This document shows positions 39,431 to 63,043 of a stretch of 64,000 nt of DNA, piece after piece. Source of the stretch: Punctularia strigosozonata HHB-11173 SS5 (Eukaryota; Basidiomycota; Agaricomycetes; Corticiales; Punctulariaceae); assembly GCF_000264995.1 (NCBI RefSeq), contig NW_006767434.1, positions 285,450 to 349,449 on the forward strand, given 5' to 3'. The notes beneath the pieces were generated by a model that did not search any database, was not told where the DNA came from, and saw nothing but the letters and a program-made list of their open reading frames with translations. Each line of letters begins with the position of its first letter. Positions within the stretch are counted from its first letter, which is position 1. The position numbers and the translations under genes were made by a program.

Positions 39431-39737
39431 CCTTTGCCCAATGAATACCACTAATAGTCGTACACGCTCTTGTAGTAAATCACGGCTATTTAGTGGTGAA
39501 CTACCAGTGGCCTAGTGCGAGCGGGCTGTTCAGCAGTACCGCACGTCCTCGGAGGTTCGGGGATGTGAATATGCTTCTTTGATGGGATCAATAAGACGGT
39601 ATGGGCGTACAGGTCGCTACCAGCCACTGCCTTGCTTCTTGGGAGGTGAGGAAGCATGGTCCTGGGCGTTTGGTATCGTTGCTCGCTTAATGCGCTGCCC
39701 ATTCGCTTATTCCCTCCGCCCGACGCGCGTTTACCGC

Positions 39738-40798: not shown

Positions 40799-40831
40799 CT
40801 TCAGTCCGCTTGCTTAGCATCTGCGTAGCAT

Positions 40832-40838
40832 ACTGCGC
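40832..40838. repeat. Target-site duplication, left (ACTGCGC)
   Basis: ACTGCGC directly abuts the left terminal inverted repeat and recurs directly abutting the right one at 63037. Confidence 0.8.
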
Positions 40839-40919
40839 CACCTCAGGCACCCCATGTACGGACACCTCTAAGGTGTATCTCTCCCACCTAATTTTTGCTT
40901 CCAAGAGGTGTTGTCGTCC
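40839..40919 (+). repeat. Left terminal inverted repeat, 81 bp
   Basis: Its reverse complement matches 62956-63036 with about four substitutions. The outer edge reads CACCTCAGG and the inner edge TTGTCGTCC. Confidence 0.88.
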
Positions 40920-41459
40920 ACGTTTTCAGGATTTTGATGGCTGCGCGTTTGGAAACGCCCACCTATGACCACTGCAGGCATGGAATCGTCCACTTCAGTA
41001 TGGCCCTTCTCATCATGCGTGGACCATCCATGGGAACGTTCGATGGTATCTGGGGTCCTGCAGCGGAGTGCAGGCTTGGTATATATCCGGCGTGGTCCTG
41101 ATAGCGTAGGGTTGCCGCACCGCAGAATGACGATTGTTGCACCGCACGAGACCCGGCCATGGAATGATCCTACATACTATATACCTGCAAAAGTTACGGA
41201 TACTCGTGGATCATATTGGATAGAGTAAGTTGGCCCGGCTGTTTGTATTCCTAGGTCATATTATTCTGCCGCATCTCCTGCTGAGTTTGTAAACATATTC
41301 ATCGAACTTTGGCTGATCTGCTTTCTCACCTGTTTACGATCATGATCAAATGAAGTTTGCTTCCCGCCCACGCTATTAGATCGCATTCGATGGGCTGTCT
41401 GTGTAGCCAAGGATTTCGGACAACAGTGTACCACCCACCGTTTGCCGGTGGTCGGACGA

Positions 41460-41840
41460 TGGACGATCCAGGATTGCTGATCGAACAGCGGACAATATAT
41501 GGAATGTCCAACCACCTGTCTGCAGATCCCATGGGCAGTCCACTATTGGTGATGGACGGTCCATGATGTTGAATCGTAATCGTGGGTCGTCCACCGCGCG
41601 CGGAGTGCGCGGTGTGGACGGTCCAGCCAGCCGCCAGTGCGCATTGTGGACGGTCCATCACAGGCCACTTACTCTTGCAGGAGTGGACTGTCCAACGTCA
41701 CGCGTTCTCGTCAGTCTGGACGATCCTTCATTCAGGTATTCCTTTCGTGGATCGTCCAGCCGGCACTGTACACGGAAGCCGATGTGGATCATCCAGAGGT
41801 AACAGTTGAACGCATACAGGGATGGACGGTCCATTATCCC
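41460..41840. repeat. Left subterminal palindrome array
   Basis: About a dozen short near-palindromes with the core TGGAC-N-GTCCA or TGGAT-N-GTCCA (for example at 41552, 41618, 41648, 41683, 41753 and 41823), spaced 30-70 bases apart. The same motif fills the right subterminal region. Such arrays are usual transposase binding sites. Confidence 0.75.
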
Positions 41841-42008
41841 ACTTCGCCAATCGCCGTACTATCCGATCCTTCTTCACAAATTAGTTGACATACCGGCCCT
41901 TTGTCAATACTCAATACTCGCTGCTCCCTTGTTTGCGAATTCTCTAAAACATAGAAGACGTTTTGACTACATGACGTCGATACATATCTGTACGGTATAT
42001 ATGCGGTT

Positions 42009-45000
42009 CTACCCCTCCTCGCGCGCAGATGTCGCTATTTCATCAGCTTTCCTTTTCCTAGGGCGAGGGCGAGGGCGAGGGCGTTTGTGATCGGTCGGCT
42101 CCCGAGGGTCTTCGACGACACGCGGCAAATTCGGTGCGCCGGATGCACCCCTTGCCATCGATGGCTGCAACGGCCGATACTCAGCTTGCATCGATGCGGA
42201 CCTCGATGCACCAAATGCGCCCATTGCCATCGGTGGGGCTTGCAGCAACTGACGCTCGGGTTGTGGTGCGCCTCTTGTCATGGGCAGCGCCTGCACTGGC
42301 GGACGCTCGGGCTGCATCGAAGAAAACCTTGACGGGTGGCCGGGTTGCGGTGCTCCTCTCATTGTCGGAGGCCCCTGCGCTGGTGGACGCTCGGGTTGCA
42401 CCGAGGCGAACCTCGATGCGTTGGACCCCCCTCTTGTCGTCGGCGGCCCCTGCATCGACTGACGTTCGGGCAGCGCCTGCGCTGGAGGACGTTCGTGTTG
42501 CATCGAAGCATACCTTGAGGGATGGTCGGGCTGCGGTGTGCTTCTGGACATCGGCGGCCCCTGTACCGGCGGACGCTCGGGTTGTACCGAGGCGAACCTC
42601 GATGCGCTGGGCCCACCTCTCGTCGTTGGCGGCCCCTGCACTTGTAGACGCTCGGGTTGCACCGAGTTGAACATCGACGCGTTGGGCCTCCCTCTTGTCG
42701 TCGGCCGTGCTCCTCTCGTCGTCGGAGGCCCCTGCGCTGGTGGACGCTCAGGTTGCACCGAGGCGAACGTCGACGCGTTGGACCCCCCTCTTGTCGTTGG
42801 CGGTCCCTGCGTGGACTGACGCTCGGGCAGCGCCTGCGCTGGCGGACGCTCGTGTTGCATCGAAGCGTACCTTGAGGAATAGTCAGGCTGCGGTGTGCTT
42901 CTGGACATCGGCGGCCCCTGTACCGGCGGACGCTCAGGTTGCACCGAGGCAAACCTCGATGCGCTGGGCCCACCTCTCGTCGTTGGCGGCCCCTGCGCTG
43001 GTAGACGCTCGGGATGCACCGAGGCGAACCTGGATGCACTGGGTTCGCCTGTTGTCATCGGCGGCCGTTCGGGATGCACCAAAGAGAACCTTGACGCGCC
43101 AGGCGCACCCCTCATCATCGGCGGCGCCTGCATCGGCGGGTGTGCCGGCCGCGTTGCTGATCCCAAGCGATCGGGCTGTGATGACACCAGCATTGTGTGA
43201 TATTCTGGTTGCAGGTACGTTGGCTCTGACGAATCTAACATGCCGGATCGTGTGTACGCGTGGTCATAGCCTCGGCTCGAGCCTGCCTGCGGTGCTTTGC
43301 GACTGGGAGGCTGATTGTCCAATCGGCTGCGACCGGGATACGCCAGCGTTTCGGACATTGCGGGCCTTGTAGGCTCCACAGGTAGATGTTGCCACTCGTC
43401 TGGGCTACCTGTCGTCTGCGGATCGTCAAGAACGGGGCCGAAGGTCCCATGCTCGGCGTGAGAGCTGTTGTCGTCGTACTCTCCTGTATAAGGAACGGCA
43501 CCCTGGACGTCGTCGGTGTCTTCATAGATGCCGTCCTCGATTGTTTCCGAAGGGTAACGATTGACGTCGTGACTGTATCCTGCGCCATTATATATGTAAT
43601 CGTCATCGTAGCTTCGTCCTGCGGGATCTACAAAGCCTGGCCATGGTTGTCCCATCTAATATTTCGGTGATTGTTAGGCCAGGGGATATCAGTTGAGATC
43701 GTCGCCTACCGAGTCCCAGTCCTGCTCATAATCGGCTTGAACATCCCTATCGATGGCATCGCGCACTGGAGGCTGCGTTGCTGACGTTTCTCCTGACGTC
43801 TCTTTTACACGGCTGGTTAATCGACGTCGCTTCTTGGACGGGCCAGGCTCAGCGGCCGATTTTTCATTCCCGTCGGCGTCCTCGGCTGGCCAATTGAGTC
43901 TCCCTTGGTCCTGGTACCATGCGGACGTGGATGCGACACGGTATTTCACCATCTGCTTGACCCAGTTGTGTATTATGATCGTCTTGCCGTCGACGATCGC
44001 CTTGTCCTCGTTTTCAACCCAGCAAAGCACGAGTGGTACCTCGCCCTGATCCTCGAGTGGCAAAGCCTTCTCCTCTGTATGGCGCGAATGAACATCGACA
44101 GTTCGTTCCATAAATATATATTCACTCACGATCGGACCAGTGTTGTATATCGAATTTGACGCCTGCACCGTTGGGACTTTGCATGAATGGCGCTACCATC
44201 TCCCTCGTGCTCCGGCCGTTCCCTGCTGCCTTCGGATGATACTCGTACGACCCCTTCTTTTCGATCCATACAGCGTTGGGATGGAAGTCGACAAATCGGA
44301 TCTTTTCGTGATACATGCGATTGAGGAGGCCCTGCCATTCCATATCAGTTCCAGGCAATGCTACATTTGCCCTCCCTGATCGTCACCGTTAGTAAGCCTC
44401 AGGCAAGATATAGATAACGTGGCTGACTGAGTTTCCACTTGAAGACATCAGTGAAGATGCGGACTTGGTAGTCTCGCAGTCCTTCGATTTTTCCGTCCGC
44501 TCTAACGTTCCTCGGCGCCGCTTTGAAGTCGTGGCTGTTTCCTTGGCTGGGTATTTCCGGAGCGGCCTTCCCTTCGCGACGAAGTTTCACACATCTGCGC
44601 AACATCTGTAAGTCATGTATAGGCGCAGAAAGGCGAGCTTTAAGTACACACTTCAGCATCGCCCCTTGGTTCGATAGCCAGTCGAGCTGATCCGGTTCCT
44701 GGATCACCTTGAGCTCTTCGCCTTCAGGCGACCCCACCCATATCATGCCGCGCCCTCTGGGACTGATGTCGATCACGGAACCTGAGATGTGATATCCATG
44801 CGAAACGTAATATCCGCGAGCCTATTCCGATTGTGAGAATATGTCTGCGCTGTGGATTACGAAACTCACCAAGGTAGCAAACTCGTTTGCGACTCGCGAA
44901 ACCTCAACGCCGGTCTTGCCTTTTGCCGCAAGCTGCTCGAGGTACGCCCTATGCCGGTCGATGTACCAGTCTATATACGGCTTCATTACTTCGTCCCGCT

Positions 45001-48000
45001 TTGACTCCGGCACGTCCTTGAGAAGGTCTCGGTATGCTTCGCTCTTGCGTTTATTGAAGTCCGCGGGAGTCTCCTCTGAACGACTTTCGTTAGTGAAACG
45101 ACATGAGGGCAGACAGGAAAGACGGACCACCTTTCTTATGAGGGGCATGGTAGGCGTACCAGGCCTCAAACACAGACCAAGGGTTCTTCGCGCGACGGAG
45201 GCTCAGACCGGGCAGACCCAGCATGTTGGCGATAGTTGCAAACGGCTTCTCGAGTCTTGTTGCCGTTTCGGATATCCAAAGTTGAATGCGCTCTGCCTCG
45301 GCTTTGATCATCTTTTCGTCTTCCTGGCTCAGCCGCCCAGGCTTGGAGGACGACTTGCCGGCACGTTTCTTGCCCTTAGAAGCGGCTGACATTTCCCTCT
45401 CGCGTCAGTAGCCAAGAATGCTGATACTTGTACTAGTCGTACTCACCTCCCTGTTTTGGTGTATCCCCACGGTTGTTGTCGTTCACGGGCACGTCAATGT
45501 CATCGACAGGTGAATCAGAGTTATCCACAGGCGGGTTGTCTTCGTTGTGGGCGGCTACAATGTGATCAGGCTAGAACCACACCCTCGCTGCGGAACACTT
45601 ACGGGCCATCTTCGACATAGGGCGAGCAGGGCGGCTTCCCTTCACCAACTTTGACTTTGCGTGCCCAGGCTGACGTGACTTCGACTTGCGCTTGCGAGTC
45701 GGCGTCTTGTCATCTTCTGGGACTGCTTCGCTCTCCAGCTCTCTATCGTCCAACGCGTCCGCGTCCTCCTGGAGCATCTCGTCCTTCTTCTTCGACCGGT
45801 GCTCATGTTCGGGCAGGAAATCTTCCCCAGAGTCTTCGGACTCCATGATTTCATCATCAGACCGGTTGGCTTTGCTTCCCTGGCGATTTGGATGCTGTGT
45901 GTCATCCTTAGTGCGTGGTGGTTGACCCCGGGATAGGCTTTTATAGTCGATGCGTGCTGTCTTGCGAGGTGAGCGCTTTACATGTGGCGCTTGGTTCCTC
46001 AGCGTGCCTTCCCTGCCTACGTCCTCGTGTCCATCAGCCTCGCTGCCAATCCCTACTACGCCCGTATCCAGCAACTTGTCACGTCTCTGAACCCTCTCGT
46101 GGTGTCGCTTCTCCTCGTCTCTATCCTCCTCGTCCCTGTCCCCGTCGTCCTCGTCCCCGTCCTCCTCGTCTTCGTTCTTCTCCTCGTCCCCGTCCTCCTT
46201 GTCCCCGTCCTCCTCCTCGTCCCCGTTCTTCTCCTCGTCGTTCTCGTCAGAATCGAGTTCCTTCTCCTCCCCAATCTCCTCAGGCTCGCTCCCCTCGGAA
46301 TCGTTCTCCTTCCCTTCATCGGGGAGCTCAGAATCAGTCTCCTCCTCGTCATCACTCTCAGGCACCATCTCCCTCTCGTTGTCTCCGTTTTCGTACTGCT
46401 CCTGCTCCTCGTCATCCTCCTTGTCGTCTTCCAGAATGACGCCACGATATGGATCGTACAGAGTCTGGTTATGTGTTCTCCAGATCGGAGAACTTTCCTG
46501 GAAATCCAACGGATGGGCTATCTTTTCTGGGGTGAGTTCCGGGGCAGGGAACATGTACGACAGATCTAGCATGTCGGTCGCATAGGTAGGGACGTCCAAG
46601 TCATAATCATCCGATCCATGGAAGCTGCTCTGAGAAACGTTAGTGCTCCGGATTCGCATACTCTATAGACACAGCAGTACATACAGTGCTCATCTGGTGG
46701 GGGTCGTGAAGGTCATCGGTGAAGTCTTCGTGCTCAACCGGGCTCGTAGGTCGATAGTAGGTGTGAGGTGGCGGAGTTTGGGGAGTTGGCAGATACGGCA
46801 GATACGACGCGCCATTTCCTTCATTGCCTACCATCCGTGGCGGGGGCAAGTAGTCCGTAGGTCGCGTTGAGGACGGAGGCGAAGCTGACAAATCGTCGTC
46901 GTCGTAGATCTCATATGCATTGCGCCCATATAGGTCGAGCGGCTCGCTTGGGACCGCCGTCTCGATAGCCAACGTCTGGGCGCTGCTATTGGCCGCTGCT
47001 CTGCGCTGACCTTGCGCTCGCTGATATCGCATGTTAAGTTCGTGAAGGTTGAATATACGCTGGTGAGTCTTACCTTTGTGTTGGCGCCGTTGGCGGCATC
47101 CTTGCCCTTCGCTGTCACTTTGCGGGTTGGAGGAGGAGGCAAATCAGCGCCGTCGTTGCCTTCGGGTCGTGGTGGCGGCTGAGAAGGCGAAGGCGAGGCT
47201 GATGGTGGAGGCGAAGCCGTTGGATCGTCCTTGTCGGGGATCTCACGCTCCTTCTCCCCATTAGGGTCGGACGGCTCGCTAGGGACCGCTGTGTTGATAG
47301 CCAGCGGCTGGGCACTGCTATCGACCGCTGCTCCGCGCTGACCTTGCGGTAGCTGATATCGCATGTTAAGTTCGTGAAGGTTGAATATCCGCTGGTGAGT
47401 CTTACCTTTTTGTTGGCGCCGTTGGCGGCATCCTTGCCCTTCGCTGTCGCTTTGCGGGTTGGAGGAGGAGGCGAATCAGCGCCGTCGTTGCCTTCGGGTC
47501 GTGGTGGCGGCTGAGAAGGCGAAGGCGAGGCTGATGGTGGAGGCGGAGCCGTTGGATCGTCCTTGTCGGGGATCTCACGCGCCTTCTCCCCATTAGGGTC
47601 GGACAGCTCGCATGGGACCGCTGTGTTGATAGCCAGCGGCCCGGCGCTGCTACTTGCCGATGCCCCATCTTTGGTCTGCAACGCCTGACGGGATCCATTG
47701 AGTATGCGAGCATAACCCTAAGAAGTCAAATGAAAGGCCTACCGCCGTTTCACCGGCCGTGCTCTTGGCACCCTTGCCCCTCCTGGCTACCTTTCCACGA
47801 ATAGGTTTCGGCCTTGCGGAATCAACCTGGGGACTCGTGTCAAAGGCACATTCGTGTTGTCAAATTTCGACCAAACCTCGGAAGACGGCTTGATTTTCTT
47901 TGCGTTCAAGATCTCCTGTTCCTTTGCGTCCGGTTTCTGCATGTGCGTGGTCGGTGGTACTGACTCATAGCATACCGATGAAGCCCACCTGTCGGTTTGA

Positions 48001-48020
48001 CAAACGAGTCTGCCGACCAC
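42009..48020 (-). CDS. Very large KDZ-element accessory protein: Pro-rich, acidic, HMG-like and repeat regions
   Basis: Read on the minus strand from about 48020 (start uncertain) to the stop at 42009. In order: tandemly duplicated Pro/Ser-rich exons (47.7-46.6 kb); an acidic Asp/Glu-rich exon (46659-45571); an exon starting MSAASKGKKRAGKSSSK with ANMLGLPGLSLRRAKNPWSV and FEAWYAYHAPHKKG, continued by EETPADFNKRKSEAYRDLLK, a helical segment recalling HMG-box proteins; then PRGRGMIWVGSPEGEELKVI, RDYQVRIFTDVFKWKLSQPR, IRFVDFHPNAVWIEKKGSYE and a basic cluster SKKRRRL. The last intron (43709..43656) joins the Asp-Trp-rich exon to a 548-codon exon of about 30-residue repeats (ASRFASVQPERPP type), ending in KRPRPRPRPRKRKADE. 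I recall similar long proteins in polypore genomes; their function is unknown. Nuclear location is inferred from basic clusters. Separate shorter genes cannot be excluded. Confidence 0.6.
42130..43080 (-). repeat. Coding minisatellite in the accessory gene
   Basis: Units of about 90-105 bases encode variants of ASRFASVQPERPPAQGPPTT. At least eight related copies occur, with a higher-order duplication of roughly 360 bases (42400-42760 against 42760-43020). The frame is kept throughout, which argues that the repeat is translated. Confidence 0.8.
47041..47660 (-). repeat. Tandem exon+intron duplication, 332-bp unit
   Basis: Bases 47041-47372 and 47373 to about 47660 are nearly identical, including the splice donor (CTTACCTTT on the plus strand) and the Pro/Ser-rich exon. 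A third, more diverged unit lies at about 46700-47040. The duplication adds an in-frame exon each time. Confidence 0.8.
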
Positions 48021-48622
48021 TGGTCAGAGTTGGTCCCGGCAACGCTGAGACTTCCCGCTGATGACTTCTAGTCTGAAGAGGATAAGCCATTTCGGCACTC
48101 GTGCAAAGAACCGCGTGGAGTCACACCTTTACGCGATCTGTTTTTGCCGGCGTTGTCGATGATATATCATCAGACCCTTCAGTGCCGGCCTGAAGAGGTA
48201 GGTCAGCAGGCGGACATAGGGACGAGAATTACATACTTACCATTGGCACTCACGACTTGAGTGCTGGGCACGCCAAATCAACGAGCAGGGCAGCGCGGAA
48301 CGCCCAACACGGTTCAAACACTCAAGGGGCTCGTACATGAGCACGTGGAACGCCCACCCCACACGCAGACGCCGGCCAAGAGACGATAGCGACAGGTGCA
48401 GCCGCGAAAACTTTCTGCGATTAGCAATCGCATGCTCTGATAATCCATCAGAGTGCATTTGTTGATGCAGATGAGCTCATACCTGTGCAACCCTAGATAC
48501 GAGCAACCCCGAAGGGATGATCGGGCCTTTACGTGTTCCAGATTTAACGTCTGTTCGCTCGTTCGCTCACCATCTCCACGATCGCAATTGCCACCATCTT
48601 CAAGCAACTTGCACTCTCCACA
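48021..48622. other. Divergent promoter region between the accessory gene and the plus-strand gene
   Basis: Six hundred bases between the uncertain head of the minus-strand accessory gene and the plus-strand gene at 48623. Possible extra 5' exons of the minus-strand gene lie here, but none could be proven. Confidence 0.4.
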
Positions 48623-51087
48623 ATGCACGCATTGCTGGAACGCATGAAGGAGGTTAACGTCAGCGAGGAGGATCGCGTGAGCAATTATCAAGAGTTGGCC
48701 GTCGCTCGCCAGATTCTGGTAGGTCATCGTGACAAGCTCATCAGCGATCTAACATGTTCAATCAGGCACATGTCTTTGCTCGAGAGCTGGCGTACCTACC
48801 GAGCAATGATGCTCCGCTGACCAATATCGTGGCGCAGCACCTGTGGTTCTTCCATCAAGACTGGGTGCTATTCGGCACGAAACCAGATCAGTATCTGAGG
48901 GTGGTGTTTTATCAGGGAGAAGTTCGACTTACCGGTCATCGAGTCCACGACGTGACACCCATTTTTGCTTGTTGGACGTCAACAGTGTTGGCTGATTTGT
49001 TTATCCAGAGGCTCGTATCGGTATTCTCCGTGCTTTACGAGCGTTGGTCAGGCAGACAGTTTCGCAACCCTCGAACGTTCCCTATCATCGTATACGCGCG
49101 GAATCAGCTGGTCCCTTTCGCCGGATTCAATACGCGTGGCTTTGTTCGCGAGACGACATGGTCCTCACATCCTGAGCCGACCGGGGATCGATACGAGCCG
49201 CTCCTGGGAAGCCCATGGTTCCTGGATTGGAGTGATCGTTCTTCCGAGGCGAGTGGACACGTCCACTGTATGACATTGCTTCTGATCCTGGTTACACGTT
49301 AGGCTCGTGAGTTACTGCGGCACATGATAAATGGCAGCCTACTCGGAGCCGGCACGTTTGCAAACAGCCCCTTCGTGGAATACCACATGGCAAACTTTCA
49401 TCAGCTACGGATGGCCTGCGCCGTGAACGCTGATCAGTACCTCAAACGCGTGCTCACCCTCGGAGAAGTTGATCTCACCGAAGTCCCCTTGTCTCAGGCG
49501 GTTTGGCTCGAACTGTTTCTGCTTTTTCTACCAGCTGACGGGTGATAAAGGATCTTTCCCTTCGTTTTTGTGCGCTATACACACGTTGGTCCGGGATTGA
49601 GATTACGGCACTAGAACGGCTTACGCCGCTGACGCGCACCGTCGGTATCCCTTTCGAGATGGATATTCACCAAATCTGGGCTACGCGAGGTGACGCTGCG
49701 GAGGGAATACAATTTTGGGGCTAAGGGGATGTTTCGATCAAATCGTTTCCGCAGGCCATGATGTTCAGCTTACCCGATAGCACCATGCAGTAATTACCGT
49801 TTCCAACGTGATCGTGATACAAGGCTGCTTGATAGGATAGTTTTTCCGTGCCGAAAACAACGGGAAGACCCGGCAGCAGTGGCGAACGCGACAACGTCGG
49901 GGCGACTCGCAATTTCAGCCCAATGCCCGTCTCACCCACCTTGACAGGGCTTTCCTAAACCTTCGAACGCTGGCCATGTCGCTGACGAACTATCCTGGTT
50001 ATCTTCTCGACCCGGAGGAAGTCGATCTACAGGAGTTCCCGACTCCTGAGAGGCTGAAACAGCTTATATACACAACGAACCGAGGCAGATGCACTGAGGT
50101 CAGTATTCTCTCAATGACACGATATCAACTGGATACTTACCAGCACAAAGACGAGCGTATTTATCTCGCTGTTGATGGTGGGACGTGGTTCGAGGGCTCG
50201 ACGAGAAACGATCATACTGCCGCATATAGTCAACTATCATCGCGAGAAGATCCTGTATGGCACAAGTGCAGCGACATACCTAGCTTGGCTTTGTGCGAGC
50301 ACTGACCTAAAGCCCGACGAGCCCTATATGGAGGTGATTGCTGCAGGATGAATGTCTTCGCCCGTTTCTGAAGTGCATCTGCAGGAGGTCGTGGAGCGGT
50401 TCGACATGGCATATAATCTGTGGAGGATGTCGCAAGTCGAAGCGATTGGGAGTACCAACCGCTCCGCACTCATGGGACCTGCTGACTTCGGGCTTCCACG
50501 TGGAGTGAATGTAGCTGCGTTGATGTTCGGTGTAGACGACAGATTAGCCAGCAGTCCGTTTCGCGGCTGGCTGGATATCCGCGCTGATGAAGTAAGTTCT
50601 CCGTCGCCTTAAACGTCTGAGGGTTAGAGCCAATATGCGCAGACTTGGGACGTTGTATTTTACCTCCAAAATCATCTCAAGTTTCGAAGATGCGGCGCTT
50701 CCGACGTCATTGCCTGGCATATCGATAACTACCATCGGCTGCAGCGCATGTTCAGTGATGTCAACAGCGAGAAATTCTTGGATTGCAAGGCGTACTTACG
50801 GCGTGTAATGGCACACGGCGGAATGCAGGACGCAAATCTGCAGAATCAAGCAACACAAGACGTGAGCTGGAGTCGGCTTTACCGAGTTTGTGTACTCACT
50901 TCTTGAACAGCAGCTTCTTGGCGCATGGGAGAGTCTGTGCTCGTCGTGGAATGGGGTATCGTTTACGGGACTTGCGCCTATCAGCAGGTTTGAGGTTCGG
51001 CAGGATTTAGCTGCTGACTGGGGTACTGCTGTGGACTGGTCTGCAATCACAATCACCGGGAGTGCTGAGGAAGAAGGTACTGTGTAG
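48623..51087 (+). CDS. Unrecognised multi-exon gene with repeated modules, inside the transposon
   Basis: The first exon starts MHALLERMKEVNVSEEDRVS and splices (donor 48720, acceptor 48767) to AHVFARELAYLPSNDAPLTN, then QYLRVVFYQGEVRLTG and SVFSVLYERWSGRQFRNPRT. A second module repeats the order: ARELLRHMINGSLLGAG, QYLKRVLTLGEVDLTEV, LRFCALYTRWSGIEITALER. A third partial module has DPEEVDLQEFP and, at the end, WESLCSSWNGVSFTGLAPIS, stopping at 51087. So the same pattern (ARELL.. QYL+V+..GEV+L.. +Y.RWSG) appears two to three times. I do not recognise the family. The later exons are hard to join and there may be two genes (a second start near 49978, MSLTNYPGYLL). No signal peptide or membrane helix is seen. 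Confidence 0.45.
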
Positions 51088-52315: not shown

Positions 52316-53242
52316 ATGGGAATTGAGCACCCATATATGACAACTGCCCACTTCGTCGCACTCGAAGGGATTGCACCAGATATGCTCAGTCAGGCGACGC
52401 TGGACATCATCGGCCTCGCCCAGTTCAACTACAGCTTCGACTCGCTCGAGGGTGGAAAGCCAAACGAGCTCAACGAGGCGATGGCGACCATGTTCAGCGC
52501 GACGGAGGGGTCGCACTTTTGGACGCTCCTCCAGGCTCGCATCCCGATCTTGCGGAAGATCGTGCGTCCCACGACCCTCTCCTTACGACGAAGGTTGGCT
52601 AATCGTACCTTGGCAGCCAACCGAGCGTGATCGTACTATCGAGTATGCACAGAACACGATGAAGTGCATTGGCTATGCCCTCATCTCTGAGCGAAAGGCG
52701 GCTATCCGTGCTGAGAAGCACGGAGCGCACGTCGAGAAGGGCAACGTACAAGGTAGCTCCCCTCGTCATGGTCGACCTTGGTCCCCATACTCAGATTGCC
52801 TTGACCAGGACGTGATCTTCTCAGTCTCCTGATCAAGTCGAACATGGCGGTTGACATTCCGGAAGAGCAACGTCTGAGTGACCACGACATCCTTTCCCAT
52901 GCGTCCTTAATTCATCTTATCACTCGCCCTGCTTCATCTGACTGACCTGCATGCAGAGATCCCGACGTTCATGGTCGCCGGCCACGAAACGACGTCAACC
53001 GGTACCACCTGGGCCCTCTTTGCGCTCACTCAGAACCAAGATGTCCAATGCAAGCTCCGCGAGGAATTGCTTTCCCCGACACCCCGACCATGGAAAAATT
53101 GAACGCGCTACCCTACCTCGATGCCGTGATCCGGGAGACGCTGCGCGTGCACGCCTCAGTGAGCGCCACGACTCGGTTCGCGATGAAGGACGAGGTGATT
53201 CCAGTCAGCGAGCCCTACACGGACAAGGACTACCAGCCGTAA
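52316..53242 (+). pseudogene. Cytochrome P450 fragment, truncated and frameshifted
   Basis: Exons with P450 character occur in order: [39 protein letters not shown] after a normal intron, [19 protein letters not shown], the I-helix [20 protein letters not shown], then [17 protein letters not shown] with the ExxR motif. After that the frame stops at 53242 following [10 protein letters not shown]. The haem-binding Cys motif is absent and the N-terminal membrane anchor is missing. Between LREELL and the NALPYLD block the frame shifts by one base (near 53070). So this is a dead piece, with GC-rich host-like codons, carried inside the transposon. A complete host copy should exist elsewhere. Confidence 0.85.
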
Positions 53243-53579
53243 TCCGGTGAAGTAGACCGATCAATCTGAGGACGTCACAGAGAAGTAGGAGCCGATGAAG
53301 AGGAGAAACAACGGCAGGAGAGGTCGCCGATGAGCGTTGAGTTCTGTGCTGTGGTAATCTCGAAGGCTCCTTGCACGTGCAGTTGTAACGGGGGTATTTC
53401 CCTTCTGGGCTATGCTTTGTCATCATTTCGTCGGTGCCACACCCTGGCTTATGTCACAGCAGTGCAGCACAGCAACAACGTGGGCATCCTCCTTAGACGA
53501 ATCCATCACTCTGGCAAGACGGGTGAGTAGTCTACCTTGCATCCTGACTTCTGATAGATTTTGAATGCACAATACAGCT
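53243..53579. other. Spacer within the transposon
   Basis: No gene recognised in these 337 bases between the P450 remnant and the small coiled-coil gene. Confidence 0.4.
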
Positions 53580-53865
53580 ATGAATACCAAAGCCAACACA
53601 TCCCTCGACGACAAGGACACGATCCTTGCCGGCGGCTATAAAGATATCGGTAACGGTATGTTAAGTCGTCATATCGGACTTACCTGATGCTGAAACCTAC
53701 TGAATAGTCTTCCCAAGGGACGTTGCTCCCCATATCATATATGCCATCATGGCGGAGAATGTCCAGCTCAGAGCGGAGAATGCGCGACTGAAGGAGGAGA
53801 ACGAAGGGATGCAGGTTACCTTGAAGCATTGGGATCATAACTTGGCGATGTGGATTCGCTACTAG
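53580..53865 (+). CDS. Small two-exon protein with a leucine-zipper-like coil
   Basis: Exons 53580..53655 and 53708..53865 join in frame through a normal 52-nt intron, giving 77 residues. The N-terminus is MNTKANTSLDDKDTILAGGY. The second exon holds AENVQLRAENARLKEENEGM, a strong coiled coil with Asn and Leu at heptad positions like bZIP zippers, but without a basic DNA-binding region before it. It may be a dimerising small protein or the remains of a larger factor. It lies between the P450 fragment and the tandem repeats of the transposon. Confidence 0.5.
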
Positions 53866-54329
53866 TTCTGATATTTGCATCCTGTGTTCTCGATAAAATC
53901 ACTCAATGCTCACGTCCTATGAGTATGAAAGAGAGCGGACTACGGATTGACAATTCAGGCTTAGCTTGGGTGTATGATGTCCCGCGGCCGAAAGCGGAAC
54001 ACCGGTAGCCGCGCTGCACGATTTTGCACGGGTGGCACGTCTGCAATCTCGGCGGGGATCCAGTGAGCCGAAGCCAATGCACCGCAAGTATTAAGCTAAG
54101 TACATGCAGTATAACAGCTACTACATCTATCTAACTCAGCCGTCCTCTTCGGCCGTGAAGTCCATGCAATGCTTGTCAGGCGCATCCATATTGAGACTCC
54201 GACCGCTCGTGCAATCAACGGTTCCACGCCTTAGCTCATCTCAACCCGATTCCTGGTCAGACAGCAGACAACTGAGCGTTTTGAACTCTTCTCCAGCGGT
54301 CTTTTCCCCCATGCTCGCAGATATGCATA
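53866..54329. other. Spacer within the transposon
   Basis: No gene recognised between the small coiled-coil gene and the 150-bp tandem repeat. Confidence 0.4.
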
Positions 54330-54890
54330 GACCTACACTAAGCGACACGTGTTGAAGAAGGAATGGCCTCAGTGGCCACTGAAAGGTGTGTATGCATGCT
54401 GAATTAGCGACGCTTTCTTGCTCACCCACTTTTGTCTCTCCAGCAAGCCGTCTCCGCCCTGCACTCGGCAGAGAGGCATAGACCCACACCAATCCACCAT
54501 GTTAGAAAAAGACGGCCTCGGTGTCCATCGAAAGGTACATATGCATGCCCAGTCAGCCACGCTTTCTTGCTCACCCGTTCATGTTTTCTCCAGCCAGCCG
54601 TCTCTGCCCTACGCTCGGCAGAAACGCAAATACCTGCACCAACCTACGCGCGTTGAAGAATGTTAAAGAAGGAACAGTCTCGGTGTCCATTGAACAGTGT
54701 GTACGCATTGAAATGGCAATGCTTTCTTGCTCACCCGTTCATTTTCCCCTCAGCCAGCCGTCTCCGCCCTACGTAGGGCATATACGCATGTATTCGTGCC
54801 AACCCACCGCGTTGAAGAAGAGACAGCCATAGGTTCCATCCGAACGTGTATATGTGTGCCGAAGAAGCGACATCATCATCCACCTCTCCT
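54330..54890. repeat. 150-bp tandem repeat, about 3.5 copies
   Basis: The anchor GCTTTCTTGCTCACCC recurs at about 54410, 54568 and 54718, each followed by a CCAGC or CAGCC motif, CGTCTCCGCCCT and GGCAGA..CAT.. blocks at the same spacing. A partial fourth copy starts near 54866. The copies differ by 10-25 percent, so the array is old. Confidence 0.75.
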
Positions 54891-56757
54891 TACTTCCGCT
54901 TGGCGTGCATACATCCTCCTCAATATATCGAGATGAAGGGGACTTCAGGACTAGACGGAGGTGAGCATGGAGGCTGGCGACCCGATTTCCACGCTCTAGC
55001 GTGCCCCACGCTGCTCGACGCCCATCTACCCCTCTTTCATTCCTTCCAGGATGCGCAAAGCTTTGCTCCACCTTCCCTTGACGCGGTTTCATCCTGCTGG
55101 GACATAGCGCCTTGTGCGCCTCCAACCGTTCCATCATCCACGCCGCTTCCTATCTACCCACCACACCTTTCACCCTCTCCACCCCCGCGCATGCCCGTCA
55201 AGCTGAAGACGAATTTCTCTGGTAGGGGAGGTCAGCGCCTACAGTCCGAACATCGACGCGCTTAGGCCCGAGCGGCGCTTGCCCTGCATATTGTTATTCT
55301 CGGGGGTAGTTGCTCGAGGCTGGAAGAGGCACGTATGCACGTAAACCACCTCTATGCTCCAGCATCATGGAAGCTTCCCGTCGCTGCTCACCCCGGTGCA
55401 TCTTCGCAATATACCCATTGTCCTTCACCCTTCCCGGGCCCGTTGAACTGAAGAGGTGATGCCTTTGGGGAGGAGAAGTGTGCGCAATGCAGGCACGGGG
55501 TTCGTCGGTGCTTCCGAGCTTCAGCGTGCATGCTCTTCCAGCCGTCGTTCGCGTTGCCCTCCTGTGTCTGGCTTGTGATACCCGGTACACATTCCTTTTT
55601 TTCCTATCAGACACTTTCTATACAGTACTGAACCACGTTTCGCACATAGTATGAAGTAGACATGTAGTTCAGACGGCGTCTGACATCTCCTCCGGAATCG
55701 AATCTGCGACTGGCGCCGCCCTTACCCGCGTTCCGACCCAGACGTTTACCCCGCCCCCAGATGGAAGCCCGTCACCGCTTTGGCGGCGCCCCGGATGCGG
55801 CTGAACGTATCTCTGAGCTGAAGGGTTTCGTGAAGGAAGCTTAATTGCCCTCATCCTCTTTGATCCTCCCGAGCCCTGTCGAGCTGAAGAAGCGATGCCT
55901 CCAGGCTGGAGTAGTATGGAAATACGGAGTTCATTGATGCTCCCGAGCTCCGGGTGCCTGTTCTGCCGGTCACCTCGTCTTCACTCAACTTACAATCCTT
56001 GGTACTCGTTCTATTCTTTCTGATCGACCGCTCTCTACGCACCGATGCATTCCGTTGAAGGCAGATCCAATTCAAATTCCCTGCCTATGACATGCGACTA
56101 TCTCACCACCTCTCATCCCATGCTTCGACTTCCTTAATGGGCATCTCTCATCTCAGATTTTCAAACTCCGGTAAAGGCTCTCTTCATTCGTATAACTTAC
56201 TTAGTTCCTGCGAGTAGCATAAAAAAGGATCACCGACCTTGGGGCGCGGCTTGCCAGTCGCACGAACTCCAGAGACGGGCAAGATTTTCTTCGACATTCT
56301 GGTTGTTCTTCTAGTGTGCTTTCTAAACGCATCTCAAACCGCGACCGGAATAAATGGAAACGGAAACATACCGGTAGGTAAGAATTCTTGTGTTAATGGA
56401 AAGCCGATCGGCACAGTTGCGGCAAGCGGCGAGTTGCCGATCGCGCGGGACGCGAGGGCTTATCGGCTAATCACGTGATGCATCCGCTTATGGAGGACCA
56501 GCGGTCCTTGCCCTCGACCCCAACTTACCTCGTCCTCCCGATCGATGTGGGTATCATCTGCCGCTGCCGAATCAGCCTGCCTCTACTTCGTCTCGCGTTG
56601 ACTCGAAGATCGCTGATGGGCCCGGACTTCAGCGCTGCTTGCCTACGCATGAATCGGATAGGAAGATACAGGAAAGGTGTGCACGCATGTTAGATGTGAG
56701 TGTGGTTATGACTATACCTTACCCTAGGCGTCACTCGTACCTGTACCGCCATCTACA
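54891..56757. other. Non-coding stretch within the transposon
   Basis: Several short open frames but no recognised protein. A CTCC/CATC-rich strand bias runs from 55080 to 55400. This looks like filler DNA, possibly old insertions. Confidence 0.4.
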
Positions 56758-57060
56758 GGCCATCGACGATGGCGGCCGAACCGCTCACGATGACGATTTG
56801 TGCAGGCTTCGCCGGCGCGTCGACATCCGAATGCGTCGCCGCGTTCACGGACAGCGCCAACCAGCTTACGGCCATCCCTCTGTGAGATTGCCCTGTCGTG
56901 CCACTCCCCACCGATTGCGCGCTCACGTTATGGGCTAGCCCGACGACGACCGAGTCCGTCAAGACTCTCAACTGCTTTGGCGAGGGCTGCGAGCTCGTGT
57001 CGACCAACAGCCTCGGGCAGCTCACCACCTCCGTCCAGTGCGTATAATATCCATTCGTTT
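56758..57060 (+). pseudogene. Fragment of a GC-rich host-like gene for a small Cys-containing protein
   Basis: After a good acceptor (CTACAG at 56757) the frame reads MAAEPLTMTICAGFAGASTS, then ECVAAFTDSANQLTAIPL. A GTGAG donor near 56879 and the acceptor GGGCTAG near 56938 would continue it as TTTESVKTLNCFGEGCELV and STNSLGQLTTSVQ. Codon use is far more GC-rich than the flanks. There is no start with signal peptide and no clear end. Probably a captured piece of a host gene, as with the P450 remnant. Family not recognised. Confidence 0.45.
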
Positions 57061-57517
57061 CCCTTCATTTTCACTCCTTTCCCTCTTATCTCGGCTTCTT
57101 CTTCCGGCAGGCCGTCGTCAACCCTTTCGTTTACCCATCACGTATCCATTATCCTCGACCCTCCCAGGCTCGCTCAACTGTAGAAGTAATACATTTGGGC
57201 TCAGCGAACTACGTGCGCACGGAGATCATTGATACGCTGGTTTGAGTGCTGCCCGCTCTGTTACATCAGTCGTCGCCACCCGACCTTCTTCGTACAATGT
57301 GTGAACTCCCTACATTGATTCCTTCTGTTTGATGACTGTCGACGACAGACAGCGCACCACAACTGGTAGTAGATAGCTCTAAGATACGAGAACATGTCTT
57401 GCGGACGAGGGACAGCGTGGATAATCCAGGATGAGATATGACGTGCCCGACGCGGGTTATTACCACTGAGGGACCGTATCCGTTTGCCTACGCTACGCAC
57501 TGTCTTCCAGAATAAGC

Positions 57518-60500
57518 ATGCGAGTACCCCGCAGTGTACTACGGGATCCGAACCAACCAGGATTCCAGCAACGGGGCTTGGTCGAAGGACCGCATTATAC
57601 TGCCCGCCATGTCCTCCCGCCTCACAAAGACGGTGCACCGATCCCGGTGATAGCTTTACCGGATGGCCGCACATACGCTCAGTACCCGTCGAACTACAAG
57701 AGGAAGAGTACATCCCATGGCTTGCCACCTCCTGATGCCAATGAAGAGCAAACCCCCCACAAGCATAACTTTTCAATGCTATCTATGGACTTTGATGGTC
57801 CGATGCAACCTGCTCGAGACAAGGAACGCTACGCCCGTAAAAAGGTCAACCAGTCTCGCCGCTGGCAGGAAACCGTGATTCCGGCCCTTGAGATGCCTTA
57901 CTTGGACTACTTAGCATGGACCAACAACCTTCGGCTCAATCCACCGTGTATATCACCGTGCTCATGCCCTGAAGCTGCCAAAAAGCGGTCACTGAAGATT
58001 CTTGGGGTGTATATCAATCGTAAGCTACGCGTACTTCTGTCGGTTCTTACTCGAATGAACATCGTGTAATAGGCCTCGAGACGGTCAACTTATCTTTATG
58101 TGACTGTACACCCGTGGCACAACACCTTCTACTTCGGGGGCTTTTTCCTTGCGCGCCTCACATGCCGTCATTGGCATTCGACCTCAACATGTTGGAACTA
58201 GTCTCGACGCTCTTCTTGAACATCGCACCCAATGTCACTGCCTGGGCATCTACACTGGAGAGTTTTCTCGGGGTTCGGGAGTATAAACTGCGTACTCGGG
58301 TACGCTGAAGGTTTATCCTCGACTCGCGGAAAGGAAGCTGATTTTCAAGCTAGGACTCTCTTCGGCGCCGCTTTGGTAATGCACTGCAGTGGTATAACCA
58401 CCTGACGGCCAGCGTTGCGCACAGGATAGAGAATAAAATCGATGATGCGCGGAGAAGGATGGAGATGGAGAAAACAGCCAGTGAGCGCATGTCATGCAAA
58501 CATTCCTTTTGCGTACTTACTTTCAAACCGGTTCACTTTCAGCGACAATTACCCGATCTCACAGATCTACCACCCTTGAAGCTGCCGCAAGCGAGGACGC
58601 AGATACTCGGCTTCCAGGCTCCGCGGAGGGAACCTCATCGCAGCCTCGTGCATCTGCAACGAACAACCGCCCGCAACCTCTAAACCCTTTTGACGAATCG
58701 CATCGAGGACTTCCAGGCAGCTCGACTCCGAAAAGTGGTCGCGCAGGTGAACACGCGGATGGAAATCTGCCAAGCAAGTATCTAAGATCCAGATGCTTCC
58801 TATGCTTTGGGAAGCCGCACGACGACGCAGATGCTGAGGGGTAAGTGACAATGCTCATCTGTGTTTATGAAGCTCAAACATCCTCATAGATTTGACGCTA
58901 TAGCATGCCTCGATGCCTGTTTCACACAGAAGCGTCAGGCGCCCCGTCCGGAGAAGAAATCGGACAAGGATGTGGACTCGACTCCATCATGCCGCTCGCA
59001 GCCCAAGGCACGCCCCGTTCGCCGGGATCCTCCACGGTATCACCCAAACTCGGTATTTATATTGGATATGGAGATCAAGCAAATGGAAGAGGAGGTGGCA
59101 CGGCTACGAAGCAAGTCATCGAGCGGCAGCCGCCCCTCCCAGTCCGACGCGGAAGACAAGACGCGAACTAAGCGCAAAGGCAAGAGACGTCATGGTGTTG
59201 ATAGCACGGAGTCGGCCACGCAGCCTGACGTCGAGGAGGACAAGTGCGAAGGTCCGCTTCGGGTGCCCAATTCCGTTCTCGATGGGTGCGAATCTTCCTT
59301 CAAAGCTGCCGACGAGCAACGTGAGAAGGCAAGTACGAACTTCTTTGAAGACACCGGCCTTATGGCTTTGATTTGCCGACACGATCGCGTACTGTGGATC
59401 GCAAATATGAGAAGTGCTGGTGAACGCCAGCACTATTCCCTCGCTCTCCTCAGGAAGCTTTTCCAGCACCTCCCGACCTCCTATCGCATGGGTATCCTGT
59501 ACGATATCGGATGTCAGCTTCACCGCAGCTGCTATAGATGGAAGTTTCTTTCCGAATGCAGCAATCGCATCGTCTTCGCAATCTCTGTCTTTCACGCTTA
59601 TGGGCATCAATGGCCCTGTCAGCTAGTATATCACCCCCGCAAATGCAAGGGATTCGGTCTCTGCGATGGAGAGGGTTGCGAGCGATTCTGGAGCGCAATC
59701 CACCATCTCGTCGCTGTGCTGCGAGTTAGTGGAGTGAGTTTCATGCATCAAATACACGATAATGCCACTCACCGACCTTGCGCAGTATCATCAGCGCCTA
59801 TATGTTCTAGACTCCCAGATTGCCCACCTAGACTCCACTCACAGACGTGCGCTGGGTCATTGGTTATCCAGGAAACATAATCTATGCCTTGCCAGGTTAG
59901 CTGAGGCTAACGAGGAGCTTCGGAAGTGCAACGTAGACCTAGAAGTACTCGATGGTCAGTGGGTTGCACAGCAGGCAGCGCAGACGAGGCCAATCAAACG
60001 TGAGCGCTGTACTAGCCCAGTTGCGATACATGAAACAAGCTTGATTTAGGTCAATCTAAGAACGCGGGCGAGAAAGCAATCGATGCCATCCTGCGGATGG
60101 ACGAGCAAATCCAGATGTTGGACAAGTACATCGCCATGGAAGAACGAAAAGTTCTAACCGGGAATGCGGACCCTACCACGACATCCACCATCAAGCGGCT
60201 TAATGATGACCGTTCCCGTGTGCAACTTAGACGCACGAAGTACTATGACGAGCTGAGCCTCGAGAATGTCGCCGCTCTCACAGATGTTCGCAAGAACAAG
60301 TTCCTTGAGGTCCGAATGAACGCGCTCGCGTTGAAGACCCGTGTACGTGAACGTCTCCGACAGCGAAAGTTCGAGTTAGCCCAAATGAAAAGATCGATCC
60401 GTACGCAGTCGTCTGGCAAGTACAATCGCGATTGAGCTGTTCTTCCGCTCATCGCCTCAGTACAGACCGCAAATTGTCCACTCACACTAGTCAAGCAGTG

Positions 60501-61812
60501 CAGCGACGCGAACCAGCTATCCAGTCGCATGCCCGCCTGTACAATGCCAAATGTCGAGAAATGGGCGAACTCGTTCGGAAAGGGCAAGCACCGCCGGGTG
60601 CAGTCGTCCCCGATGAAATCGACCTCACCAAACTATGGACCCTGGACGTAGACGACAATATCTGGCAAGATACCGGGCTCTTGGACGATGAGACGGCGTC
60701 GACGGACGGAGTGCCACCTCTCTGGCTCGCGGACGAGCAGGTCAGGAAAGGAATTCGGGCGATGCTAGAGGTTCGGCGATGCGAAGAGGAACTGTCGAGA
60801 ATCAGAAAGGAGAGGTCGATTTTGCAAGAATGGGCGCGGGCAGAGTGGGAAGCGATTGAATATGCTATTAAGTCTCACGGAAAGTGCTGGTTATTCGATG
60901 GTCTCTCCGATGCTAACGTACATGGGCATATCAGATGGCGAGGACGGAGTTGTGCACCAACTGCGGATGCGGCGTGGTGAACTGCTTCGCCTGATTGTGA
61001 CATGGCGCCGAAGAGTCGGCGATATAGACAGTGGTGAACTTTGGGACGGGTCGTGGGGCCCAACGTCAAAGGAGATAACCGAAGGCATCCAGCATGAAAT
61101 GCAGGCATCTGCATCGACACCCGCTTCTGCATCGGGACCCGAGCTCTGGTCCTCCGAGTTGTCTAACCCCGCATACTCACAGGAGGCAGCATTCGATCAC
61201 TGCATCCCAGATGATCCGGACGATCCGGACGACTATGTTGACGTCGAAGGGAATCCAGTCGATCTGTCCGACAACGACGATTCAAACGAGGCTCTGGCAG
61301 CGGTCATTGAAAGCGTCGAGAACATGTATCTTCATACTAGCGGTCAGCCTTCCGACGCGTGGATTGATCTTCCCTGGTCATCGGCACCATCAACTCCATC
61401 GTTGATTTACAGCTCCCCAAGCTCCGCCTCTCGGCGTTTGACATCAACACCAAGTGCCAGCTCATCGGCTTCAGCAGCTGATCGCTATTTGCCCGCTATG
61501 TCGGATAGTACAGCTGATCCAGCAACGCCCACAGCACGATCTAGATTTGGTGTTGCCCATCGGAGGGCCGATATGATCGGTACGGGAGGCTCTGCGGGAT
61601 TTAACCTGGCGCGTTCCGTCCCGCGTCCCATCCCGTTTGCATTGCCGTCTACGTCGGAGGTGCATTCGGAAGATGCATTTGATGACCCCCTGACTTCACG
61701 TGAGTGATGTTCTTCTACAGTGCCATGTTAACGTTCTTACGCAGAACTCTCAGGTATGTACGACACCGCCGGCGATGTGTTTTATAGCCCGAAGCGCTCG
61801 AGACTTCAGTAG
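57518..61812 (+). CDS. KDZ (Kyakuja-Dileera-Zisupton) transposase with CxC cysteine cluster
   Basis: Exons: 57518..58019, 58073..58299, 58354..58480, 58543..58840, 58890..59733, 59786..59999, 60050..60419, 60461 onward, up to ..61699, and 61745..61812; about 1,280 residues. Motifs in order: NFSMLSMDFDGPM and a WxxxVIPALEMPYLDYLAW block; the cysteine cluster CISPCSCPEAAKKRSLKILG, SLCDCTPVAQHLLLRGLFPC; DSLRRRFGNALQWYNHLTAS; RCFLCFGK; then the core AIACLDACFTQKR, ALICRHDRVLWIANMRSAGE, SYRMGILYDIGCQLHR, FAISVFHAYGHQWPCQL, CKGFGLCDGEGCERFWSAIH. The acidic residues in LDACF, YDIGC and GEGCERFWS are the expected catalytic ones of this DDE-type family. A coiled region and an acidic tail follow. Only one junction, near 60,850-60,945, does not splice cleanly (34-nt intron or frameshift). 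The start codon is tentative. Confidence 0.88.
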
Positions 61813-61929
61813 TAGTGCTAAACTTTTATGTATCTTACGGACGACCTACATTGAGCCCGTTGAGCCCAGCGAGACGCAGCATGAGAAATGTGCACCGTCC
61901 ACCTTCGCCAAGGTGGGTAACGTCGCTGG

Positions 61930-62400
61930 ATCATCCATAATGCGGGAGACATCGCTGCAGTTGGAGTTGGATCATCCAGCTTCGTATACCATGCATCCGG
62001 CGACGAGGTGGATTGTCCACACTGCAGAGCCCCGCGGGTTACGTAGTGTGGACCGTCCACAATCTACATGGGCAACACGGGAGTCGTCCACCATGTCCAC
62101 GGTGGATGCTCCAGCTTTCCATCACTCTGCTAAAAGTCCTGTTGGACAGTCCACACGGACAGGATGTATCCACTGTGCTCAATGTGGATGCTCCAACATT
62201 CCATCGTATATTTTGCAGTGCTGTTGGACGATCCACGTACATATATGGCTATCCACAGTGTTATGTAGTGGATGTTCCAGCATTCCATAACGCTGCTGGA
62301 AGACCTGCTGGACAATACACACGTACATGTGCGAAGGGCAGTCCTAGTGGACGATCCACGCGTACATATGCGAAGGGCTGTCCACACGAGATGTTCGTGA
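61930..62400. repeat. Right subterminal palindrome array
   Basis: Cores such as TGGATTGTCCA, TGGACCGTCCA, TGGACAGTCCA, TGGACGATCCA and TGGATGCTCCA, at least ten of them, with further copies near 62886-62935. They match the left array at 41460-41840. Confidence 0.75.
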
Positions 62401-62955
62401 CCGGAGATGTTTCTCCGTCACCCACTCGGCTCGGAATATACAGCTGTCTAAGCCAGCATGAACAGACGGTTGATATCGATGCCCGGATGCTATCCAGTAG
62501 TACGGGATGGACGCGTGTTGGATGGCAAGCACGAAGAATTTCATTATGAGAAGGTACGAGTTGCAAAACAACATGTGGGTAGTTCGTGCGGTCTATGCCA
62601 AAGGAAATGAAGGGAGCACAATTGCGCCGGAAATATACCTACCTACCTACCTACCAACCTTTCGCAATCGGACCCCTAACACCGCGAAGGTACAATATGG
62701 CCGCCCCAATGCGCCCCAACTTATCAGAAATCCACATGGGCGTTCCATAGTAAGTCCTTTGCATACTGAAACCTGTCTTTACAGGCGTGCATCGTAGAGA
62801 AGATACTTGGGCACTAGGTATGAACACATCTATATAGAGAAGACCACGAGCAACGTTGTAGCTGACGTGTATTCTGCACGAACGATGGATCGTGGATTGT
62901 CCAATGTATATGTCGTCGGATTGTCGTCCACAATACGTGGATGCATCATATTTAC
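62401..62955. other. Inner flank of the right transposon end
   Basis: No gene recognised. A (CTAC)n run lies at 62637-62656 and more subterminal motifs lie between 62880 and 62940. Confidence 0.45.
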
Positions 62956-63036
62956 GGACGACAACACCTCTTGGGAGCAAAAATGAGGTGGGAGAGATAC
63001 ACCTTAGAGGCGTCCGTACATGGGGTGCCTGAGGTG
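62956..63036 (-). repeat. Right terminal inverted repeat, 81 bp
   Basis: Inverted match of 40839-40919. The outer edge ends CCTGAGGTG at 63036, followed at once by the target duplication. Confidence 0.88.
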
Positions 63037-63043
63037 ACTGCGC
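63037..63043. repeat. Target-site duplication, right (ACTGCGC)
   Basis: Direct repeat of 40832-40838. The next base differs from the left flank, so the duplication is 7 bp as seen. Confidence 0.8.

What the first reader, a model, noticed from the sequence alone, without database searches (positions are those of the whole stretch)
40839..63036. A complete 22-kb DNA transposon with defined ends, target duplication and several cargo genes
The 81-bp inverted ends, the directly abutting ACTGCGC duplication and the matching palindrome arrays on both sides define the borders to the base. The element carries a nearly intact KDZ transposase, a giant accessory gene, an unrecognised modular gene, a small coiled-coil gene and host gene scraps. 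Most fungal DNA transposons are 1-6 kb, so this is a large cargo-carrying element with precise limits. I read the ends from the sequence; KDZ elements in Agaricomycetes are known.
Basis: partly seen in the sequence, partly recalled or inferred. Interest (0 to 1): 0.85.

Follow-up and report, generated by a model that had tools for sequence, protein, structure and literature searches.

The report
22-kb KDZ-type fungal DNA transposon
A fungal genome carries a single-copy, 22-kb jumping gene with exact ends; relatives in the same genome share its terminal motif, its 7-base target duplication and two extra genes of unknown function, and this copy has also picked up a broken piece of a host enzyme gene.

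Summary
The element is real and its borders hold to the base: 40839-63036 (22,198 bp), ends 78/81 identical, 7-bp duplication ACTGCGC. No second copy of its end was found, but a terminal motif (CACCTCAGnCACCCC) marks relatives: five further end pairs carry exact, different 7-bp duplications. Ten KDZ places form its class; 8 of 10 have 'gene A' 10-17 kb away, 0 of 19 other KDZ places do, and 8 of 10 A loci have 'gene B' within 6 kb. So the 'giant accessory gene' is core equipment, not cargo. Transposase (KDZ plus CxC1) and gene A are predicted as open multi-exon genes. The identifiable cargo is broken: 847 bp of a host P450 gene, introns included, 95% identical to its donor, plus small patches. 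Best reading: a cut-and-paste, Kyakuja-like KDZ transposon that acquired host DNA, probably by gap repair. Superfamily and 7-bp duplication are known; long TIRs, the A/B module and 20-36 kb size look little described. The empty site could not be tested. One relative (C4) has its TIRs inside out, unexplained.

The parts
40832..40838 (.). target site duplication, left copy (ACTGCGC)
40839..40919 (+). left terminal inverted repeat, 78/81 to right end; begins CACCTCAGGCACCCC
40914..41758 (.). left subterminal motif zone: 6 x TGGAC(G/A)A or its complement
42009..47942 (-). gene A: predicted 12 exons, 1768 codons, no Pfam match over cut-off in the parts scanned; tandem repeats at 42282-43066
43824..45348 (-). 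gene A part conserved in relatives C23 and C8
48622..49724 (+). gene B, first tandem copy (borders approximate, from conserved blocks and open frames)
49976..51084 (+). gene B, second tandem copy (borders approximate; intactness not settled)
52384..53230 (+). captured host cytochrome P450 fragment with introns, 95% to C17:550772-551629; cut at both sides and with a 7-bp deletion in an exon
53565..53865 (+). small predicted ORF with a coiled-coil-like stretch (by eye); no support beyond the frame
53988..54129 (.). dispersed repeat (4 hits on C2 and C7, 70-82%)
54290..54860 (+). direct repeats, about 70% alike, no convincing gene call
55690..55780 (.). patch 92% to C5:479387-479481
55783..55843 (.). 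patch 97% to C26:7012-7072, 2 bp from the previous patch
56146..56426 (.). 72% to C22:311451-311733, just inside a relative's end
56731..57092 (+). patch 91% to C6:1645316-1645681 and C17:5492-5858
57518..61707 (+). transposase gene: predicted 9 exons, 1235 aa, CxC1 and KDZ domains
58894..59760 (+). KDZ catalytic domain
62013..62930 (.). right subterminal motif zone: 7 x TGGAC(G/A)A or its complement
62956..63036 (-). right terminal inverted repeat
63037..63043 (.). target site duplication, right copy (ACTGCGC)

Best explanation
A complete, single-copy, autonomous-looking cut-and-paste DNA transposon of the KDZ superfamily, closest in its termini and 7-bp duplication to the Kyakuja branch. Shown: exact ends, target duplication, an open predicted transposase with invariant candidate catalytic D, D, E residues, subterminal motif clusters, and a module of ends, gene A (opposite strand), gene B and transposase shared with relatives. 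Inferred: the CxC1-bearing transposase binds the terminal repeats and subterminal motifs, cuts both ends and joins them to a 7-bp staggered target; genes A and B act in transposition or its regulation, as second proteins do in other DNA transposons. The P450 stretch and the small patches most likely entered by template switching during repair of the gap left by excision, because introns are kept and pieces matching different contigs lie nearly side by side.
For: TIR and TSD exact; TIR found only in this element. Relatives: C8 19,903 bp/CGATCAT, C23 25,931 bp/ATGGATG, C6 36,020 bp/CATACTC, C20+C22 contig tips/TGGTAAG, C4/GCGTCTT, each an exact 7-bp repeat next to the terminal motif. KDZ E 5e-57, CxC1 E 5e-9, both over cut-off; D7, D204, E260 and E263 invariant in 9 of 9 aligned class-1 domains. 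Gene order kept (tblastx). Gene A has a class-1 KDZ within 20 kb at 8 of 10 A loci, 0 of 19 class-2 places have A within 20 kb; about 2e-14 under random placement. Gene A and transposase predictions beat 40 of 40 shuffles each. Subterminal motif enrichment. P450 capture 815/858 with introns; predicted donor gene covers the P450 profile 3-453 of 462.
Against: No empty site and no second copy of this element. The TIR is 81 bp here, while Kojima 2025 reports no TIRs for two Laccaria Kyakuja families. Two of ten class-1 KDZ places lack a detected gene A and two of ten A loci lack a detected B. Five of the ten A loci rest on weaker hits (C8 2e-5, C22 8e-5, C4 0.003, C9:207896 0.003, C6:1655389 0.005). 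Ten of the 20 further terminal-motif sites read have no partner. The C4 relative has its TIRs facing the wrong way. The fold of the KDZ domain is of low confidence (pLDDT 53). What A and B do is untested; no Pfam match over cut-off and no PDB relative. The matching interval of C23 shows no capture.
Confidence: 0.87

Rival explanations
1. Genes A and B are host cargo picked up by the transposon.
For: Neither has a Pfam match over cut-off or a PDB relative, and neither is needed by simple cut-and-paste transposons (the second part is general knowledge).
Against: The 10 gene A loci found (a lower bound) lie near a class-1 KDZ (8) or 5-6 kb inside a terminal motif of the family (C22, C6); order and orientation are kept at 24-40% protein identity. 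No free host copy was among the hits.
Confidence: 0.08
2. The element is a non-autonomous carrier moved in trans by another KDZ transposase.
For: Single copy, no close sister; part of the interior is broken host DNA.
Against: The predicted transposase frame is open over 1,235 codons with the invariant residues kept; beyond the terminal motif its TIR differs from those of the other families.
Confidence: 0.15
3. Assembly artefact or chance pairing of repeats.
For: The assembly has N gaps (39796-40605 ends 233 bp left of the element) and gaps inside relatives' TIRs.
Against: No N inside 40839-63036; exact 7-bp duplications recur at five other end pairs.
Confidence: 0.02

Closest known systems
Kyakuja DNA transposons (KDZ; Laccaria Kyakuja-1_LB and -2_LB; Kojima 2025, PMC12730594: outline, section 3 part 1 of 3, figure legends and passages seen)
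   Same: KDZ transposase, 7-bp target duplications, 5'-CA..TG-3' termini
   Different: Those two families are reported to have no TIRs and to carry TET/JBP; this element has 81-bp TIRs (relatives longer) and no Tet_JBP match inside; genes like A and B were not mentioned in what I saw
Cryptococcus KDZ1, KDZ2, KDZ3 (PMC12810828, passages seen)
   Same: KDZ plus CxC1 transposase, TIRs; there with proven mobility
   Different: 9-11 kb, 139-241 bp TIRs, 8-bp (4-8 bp) duplications; here 20-36 kb and 7 bp
Pack-MULEs and other gene-capturing DNA transposons (PMC6431247, passages seen; hAT with histone H3, PMC6710886, abstract seen)
   Same: Host gene fragments held between TIRs
   Different: This element keeps its own transposase and further conserved genes
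Starships (abstract starts in the listings only)
   Same: Large fungal transposons that carry extra genes
   Different: Tyrosine recombinase and Pezizomycotina there; KDZ transposase with TIRs here

Membership tests
KDZ superfamily | KDZ transposase domain (PF18758) | tested here: met
   E 5e-57, 193.5 bits against cut-off 26.6
KDZ superfamily | Zn-chelating CxC cluster in the transposase | tested here: met
   CxC1 PF18802 E 5e-9, 36.7 bits against 26.9; CxC2 below its cut-off
KDZ superfamily | Catalytic D, D, E in an RNase-H-like fold | tested here: inconclusive
   Candidate D7, D204, E260/E263 invariant in 9 of 9 rows (that these are the catalytic residues is recalled); model pLDDT 53
Kyakuja branch | 7-bp target duplication | tested here: met
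   Window and five other end pairs
Kyakuja branch | 5'-CA..TG-3' termini | tested here: met
   CACCTCAG..CTGAGGTG for relatives, CACCTCAGG..CCTGAGGTG here
Kyakuja branch | Absence of TIRs (reported for two Laccaria families; not clearly defining) | tested here: not met
   81-bp TIR, 78/81
Kyakuja branch | Transposase falls in the Kyakuja clade | not testable with these tools
   No reference Kyakuja, Dileera or Zisupton sequences were at hand
Zisupton or Dileera | 8-bp target duplication | tested here: not met
   7 bp in 6 of 6 pairs, window included
Starship | Tyrosine recombinase captain gene | tested here: inconclusive
   No such match in the 10 ORFs and the window proteins scanned, which do not cover the whole element; not searched for by name
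TET/JBP-carrying KDZ | Tet_JBP gene inside the element | tested here: not met
   4 places in the genome, 1 over cut-off, none in C2:326288-348485

The most novel reading that the evidence does not exclude
Basidiomycetes hold a lineage of giant, mostly single-copy KDZ transposons (20-36 kb) built on a fixed module of TIR, gene A, gene B and transposase, in which A and B are partner proteins needed to move such large DNA, and which stitch host gene pieces (P450 here, an RPA3-like gene in the C8 relative) into themselves during gap repair.
Probability: 0.35. Interest if true: 0.62.

Novelty: new variant of a known kind. Interest (0 to 1): 0.47.

Why it matters
KDZ elements are called understudied in the Marasmius genome paper (PMC8290104, passages seen). 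Here are exact borders for several large ones in one genome, a conserved two-gene companion set without any recognised domain, and a captured host enzyme fragment whose donor is still present. That makes it testable whether basidiomycetes have their own large gene-carrying DNA transposons and what A and B do.

Tried and rejected
Looked for further copies of this element by its end: none. Looked for the empty site through repeats of the flanks: the right flank gave only itself, the left flank is a dispersed 33-bp tandem repeat that shows no empty site; no other strain is held. Tet_JBP as an accessory gene: not in the element. Rfam: nothing at gathering score in the window. PDB profile searches for A and B: nothing at E 5. 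A hexamer coding score was too weak to use and was replaced by a codon and splice model. The KDZ fold was of too low confidence to search. A tree of 10 KDZ domains left the window row without a well-supported neighbour. Capture in C23 between B and transposase: none found. I considered reversed-ends transposition (recalled from maize Ac) for the C4 copy, but its interior has the ordinary gene order, so I do not claim it.
Full report
What was checked. The window lies at C2:285450-349449 of an unnamed 33.6-Mb genome in 32 contigs. The left end starts at 40839 and the right end stops at 63036; ACTGCGC abuts both. The two ends match over 81 bp with 3 differences. The end was found nowhere else by DNA search or by a 25-bp pattern with up to 3 mismatches. 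There is no N between the borders. The host is taken to be a basidiomycete from its KDZ/CxC content; it is not named.

Relatives support the borders. Three KDZ relatives were read around their transposase, and two showed the start CACCTCAGnCACCCC. That pattern, with up to one mismatch, has 36 sites in the genome (13 exact) against 24 for the pattern read backwards, so one-mismatch sites are largely chance. Two of the 36 are the window's; I read 20 of the other 34 (all 11 exact, 9 of 23 with one mismatch). They give five pairs, each with an exact 7-bp repeat next to the ends: C8 (19,903 bp, CGATCAT), C23 (25,931 bp, ATGGATG), C6 (36,020 bp, CATACTC; one-mismatch ends), the tips of contigs C20 and C22 (TGGTAAG), and C4 (GCGTCTT). 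The other ten sites have no partner; six (C2:2931788, C4:453, C6:2079454, C7:3053, C13:737334, C16:558335) look to me like further family ends, the other four do not, save for a head-to-head motif pair at C15. The inverted repeats of the relatives are longer than in the window: identical over the 300 bp compared in four pairs, two differences in C6. In pieces around N gaps of uncertain size they reach about 1.8-2.0 kb in C8 and about 4 kb in C23; about 1.5 kb in C4.

Transposase. Pfam KDZ rings at 48 stretches (a lower bound), which I group as 29 places. Ten of them, the window included, form 'class 1': the window domain is 51-59% identical to the nine others by tblastn, while of the remaining loci only one gave a weak match (28% over 94 residues). 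The predicted gene spans 57518-61707 in 9 exons, with CxC1 and KDZ domains. In an alignment of 9 of the 10 class-1 domains (C7 left out, it holds a stop) the candidate catalytic residues are invariant. A fold from those 9 rows reached only pLDDT 53, so it says little.

Genes A and B. Gene A is predicted from 47942 to 42009 on the minus strand, 12 exons and 1,768 codons. The predictor scores it 142; the best of 40 dinucleotide shuffles scores 3.5; for the transposase 41 against 0. tblastx without summed statistics shows A, B and transposase in C8 and C23, and B and transposase in C9 (where A lies outside the fetched part), in the same order and orientation. The A core is 40% (C23) and 24% (C8) identical to the window. 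A search of the genome with the C23 A core (E up to 0.01) lists 10 loci, with the C23 B protein 8 loci; none was dropped. Five of the A loci rest on weaker hits (E 2e-5 to 0.005), but for C8 the predicted gene, and for C4 the recognisable C-terminus, agree. Eight of 10 A loci have a class-1 KDZ within 20 kb (10.4-16.8 kb) and eight have B within 6 kb; none of the 19 class-2 places has A within 20 kb. The two A loci without KDZ are near the C22 contig tip and in the C6 element with an N gap of at least 13 kb. The two class-1 places without A are C7:1260110 and the 21.7-kb contig C28. B is tandem-duplicated in the window and in C23. Neither A nor B has a Pfam match over cut-off (the low-complexity parts of A only in part) or a PDB relative at E 5. 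They look like core parts of this transposon lineage; their job is inferred only.

Captured host DNA. Between B and transposase, 52384-53230 is 95% identical (815/858) to C17:550772-551629 and keeps the introns; the donor is predicted as a P450 gene covering nearly the whole profile, while the copy is cut at both sides and has a 7-bp deletion in an exon. Further patches match C5, C26 and C6/C17 at 91-97%; two of them lie 2 bp apart though they match different contigs. That pattern fits template switching in gap repair; this is inference. In the C8 relative an RPA3-like predicted gene lies in the same interval (PF08661 E 1.2e-5, over cut-off). In C23 the 4.55-kb interval matched nothing else in the genome, so capture is not constant.

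Subterminal motif. TGGAC(G/A)A or its complement occurs 6 and 7 times in the outer 1.2 kb and 6 times in the rest (0.30 per kb), and 18 times in 40.8 kb outside the element (0.44 per kb). The motif was chosen after looking at enriched words, so the P values (2e-6, 1e-7) are optimistic. The C4 TIR holds GGTACGTACC ten times counted over both strands (a palindrome, so five sites). Such clusters are where transposases often bind (recalled).

Comparison with print. Kojima 2025 (outline, section 3 part 1 of 3, passages, legends) gives 7-bp duplications, CA..TG termini and no TIRs for two Laccaria Kyakuja families. Cryptococcus KDZ1-3 are 9-11 kb with 8-bp (4-8 bp) duplications (passages). In Pleurotus, intact KDZ elements are preceded by a CxC2 cluster (passage); here CxC1 fits better and CxC2 stays below cut-off. 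The Marasmius genome paper says it characterised KDZ/Plavaka TIR motifs in a supplement that I could not open (passages), and a later Marasmius paper mentions a library element size up to about 42 kb (passage). The giant-transposon review has no occurrence of KDZ, Zisupton or Kyakuja. Iyer 2014, which is cited for KDZ, is not held and may describe companion genes. My six library searches listed nothing that I recognised as the A/B module, but subscription papers and Repbase are outside them and I opened only eight papers.

Odd relative. In C4 the interior (from the C-terminus of A to that of the transposase) is joined without N to the OUTER ends of 1.5-kb repeats, with GCGTCTT on the interior side; the inner ends face other sequence, on one side what looks by eye like a DEAD-box helicase gene. 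I cannot explain it; misassembly is possible.

Noticed in passing
C4:1096992-1120868 (L008, L063, L064, L075, L076): KDZ relative whose 1.5-kb terminal repeats are inside out: outer ends and the 7-bp repeat GCGTCTT face the element's own genes; no N at the joins.
   Followed up: partly
C20:423929 to contig end and C22:311078 onward (L048, L049): Identical ends with reciprocal 7-bp TGGTAAG: the two contigs probably hold the two sides of one insertion and so are neighbours on one chromosome.
   Followed up: partly
C6:1649378-1685397 (L077, L078): 36-kb relative with A and B hits but no KDZ match; its interior seems to hold a DIRS-like retroelement (recognised by eye) and an N gap of at least 13 kb.
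   Followed up: partly
C8 relative, interval between B and transposase (L037): A 164-residue predicted gene with an RPA3 (PF08661) match inside the element.
   Followed up: partly
C15:571841 (L057): Two terminal motifs abut head to head in about 30 bp, like the scar of an internally deleted element.
   Followed up: no
window 2229-3062 and 3378-4211: 834 bp identical on both sides of an N run: probable scaffold duplication.
   Followed up: no
window 27487-28753 and 31343-32594: Neighbouring stretches 69-85% alike, perhaps a tandem gene duplicate outside the element.
   Followed up: no
window 39716-40838: Left flank is a 33-bp tandem repeat array interrupted by N, with relatives on C16, C14 and C2:58k.
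   Followed up: partly
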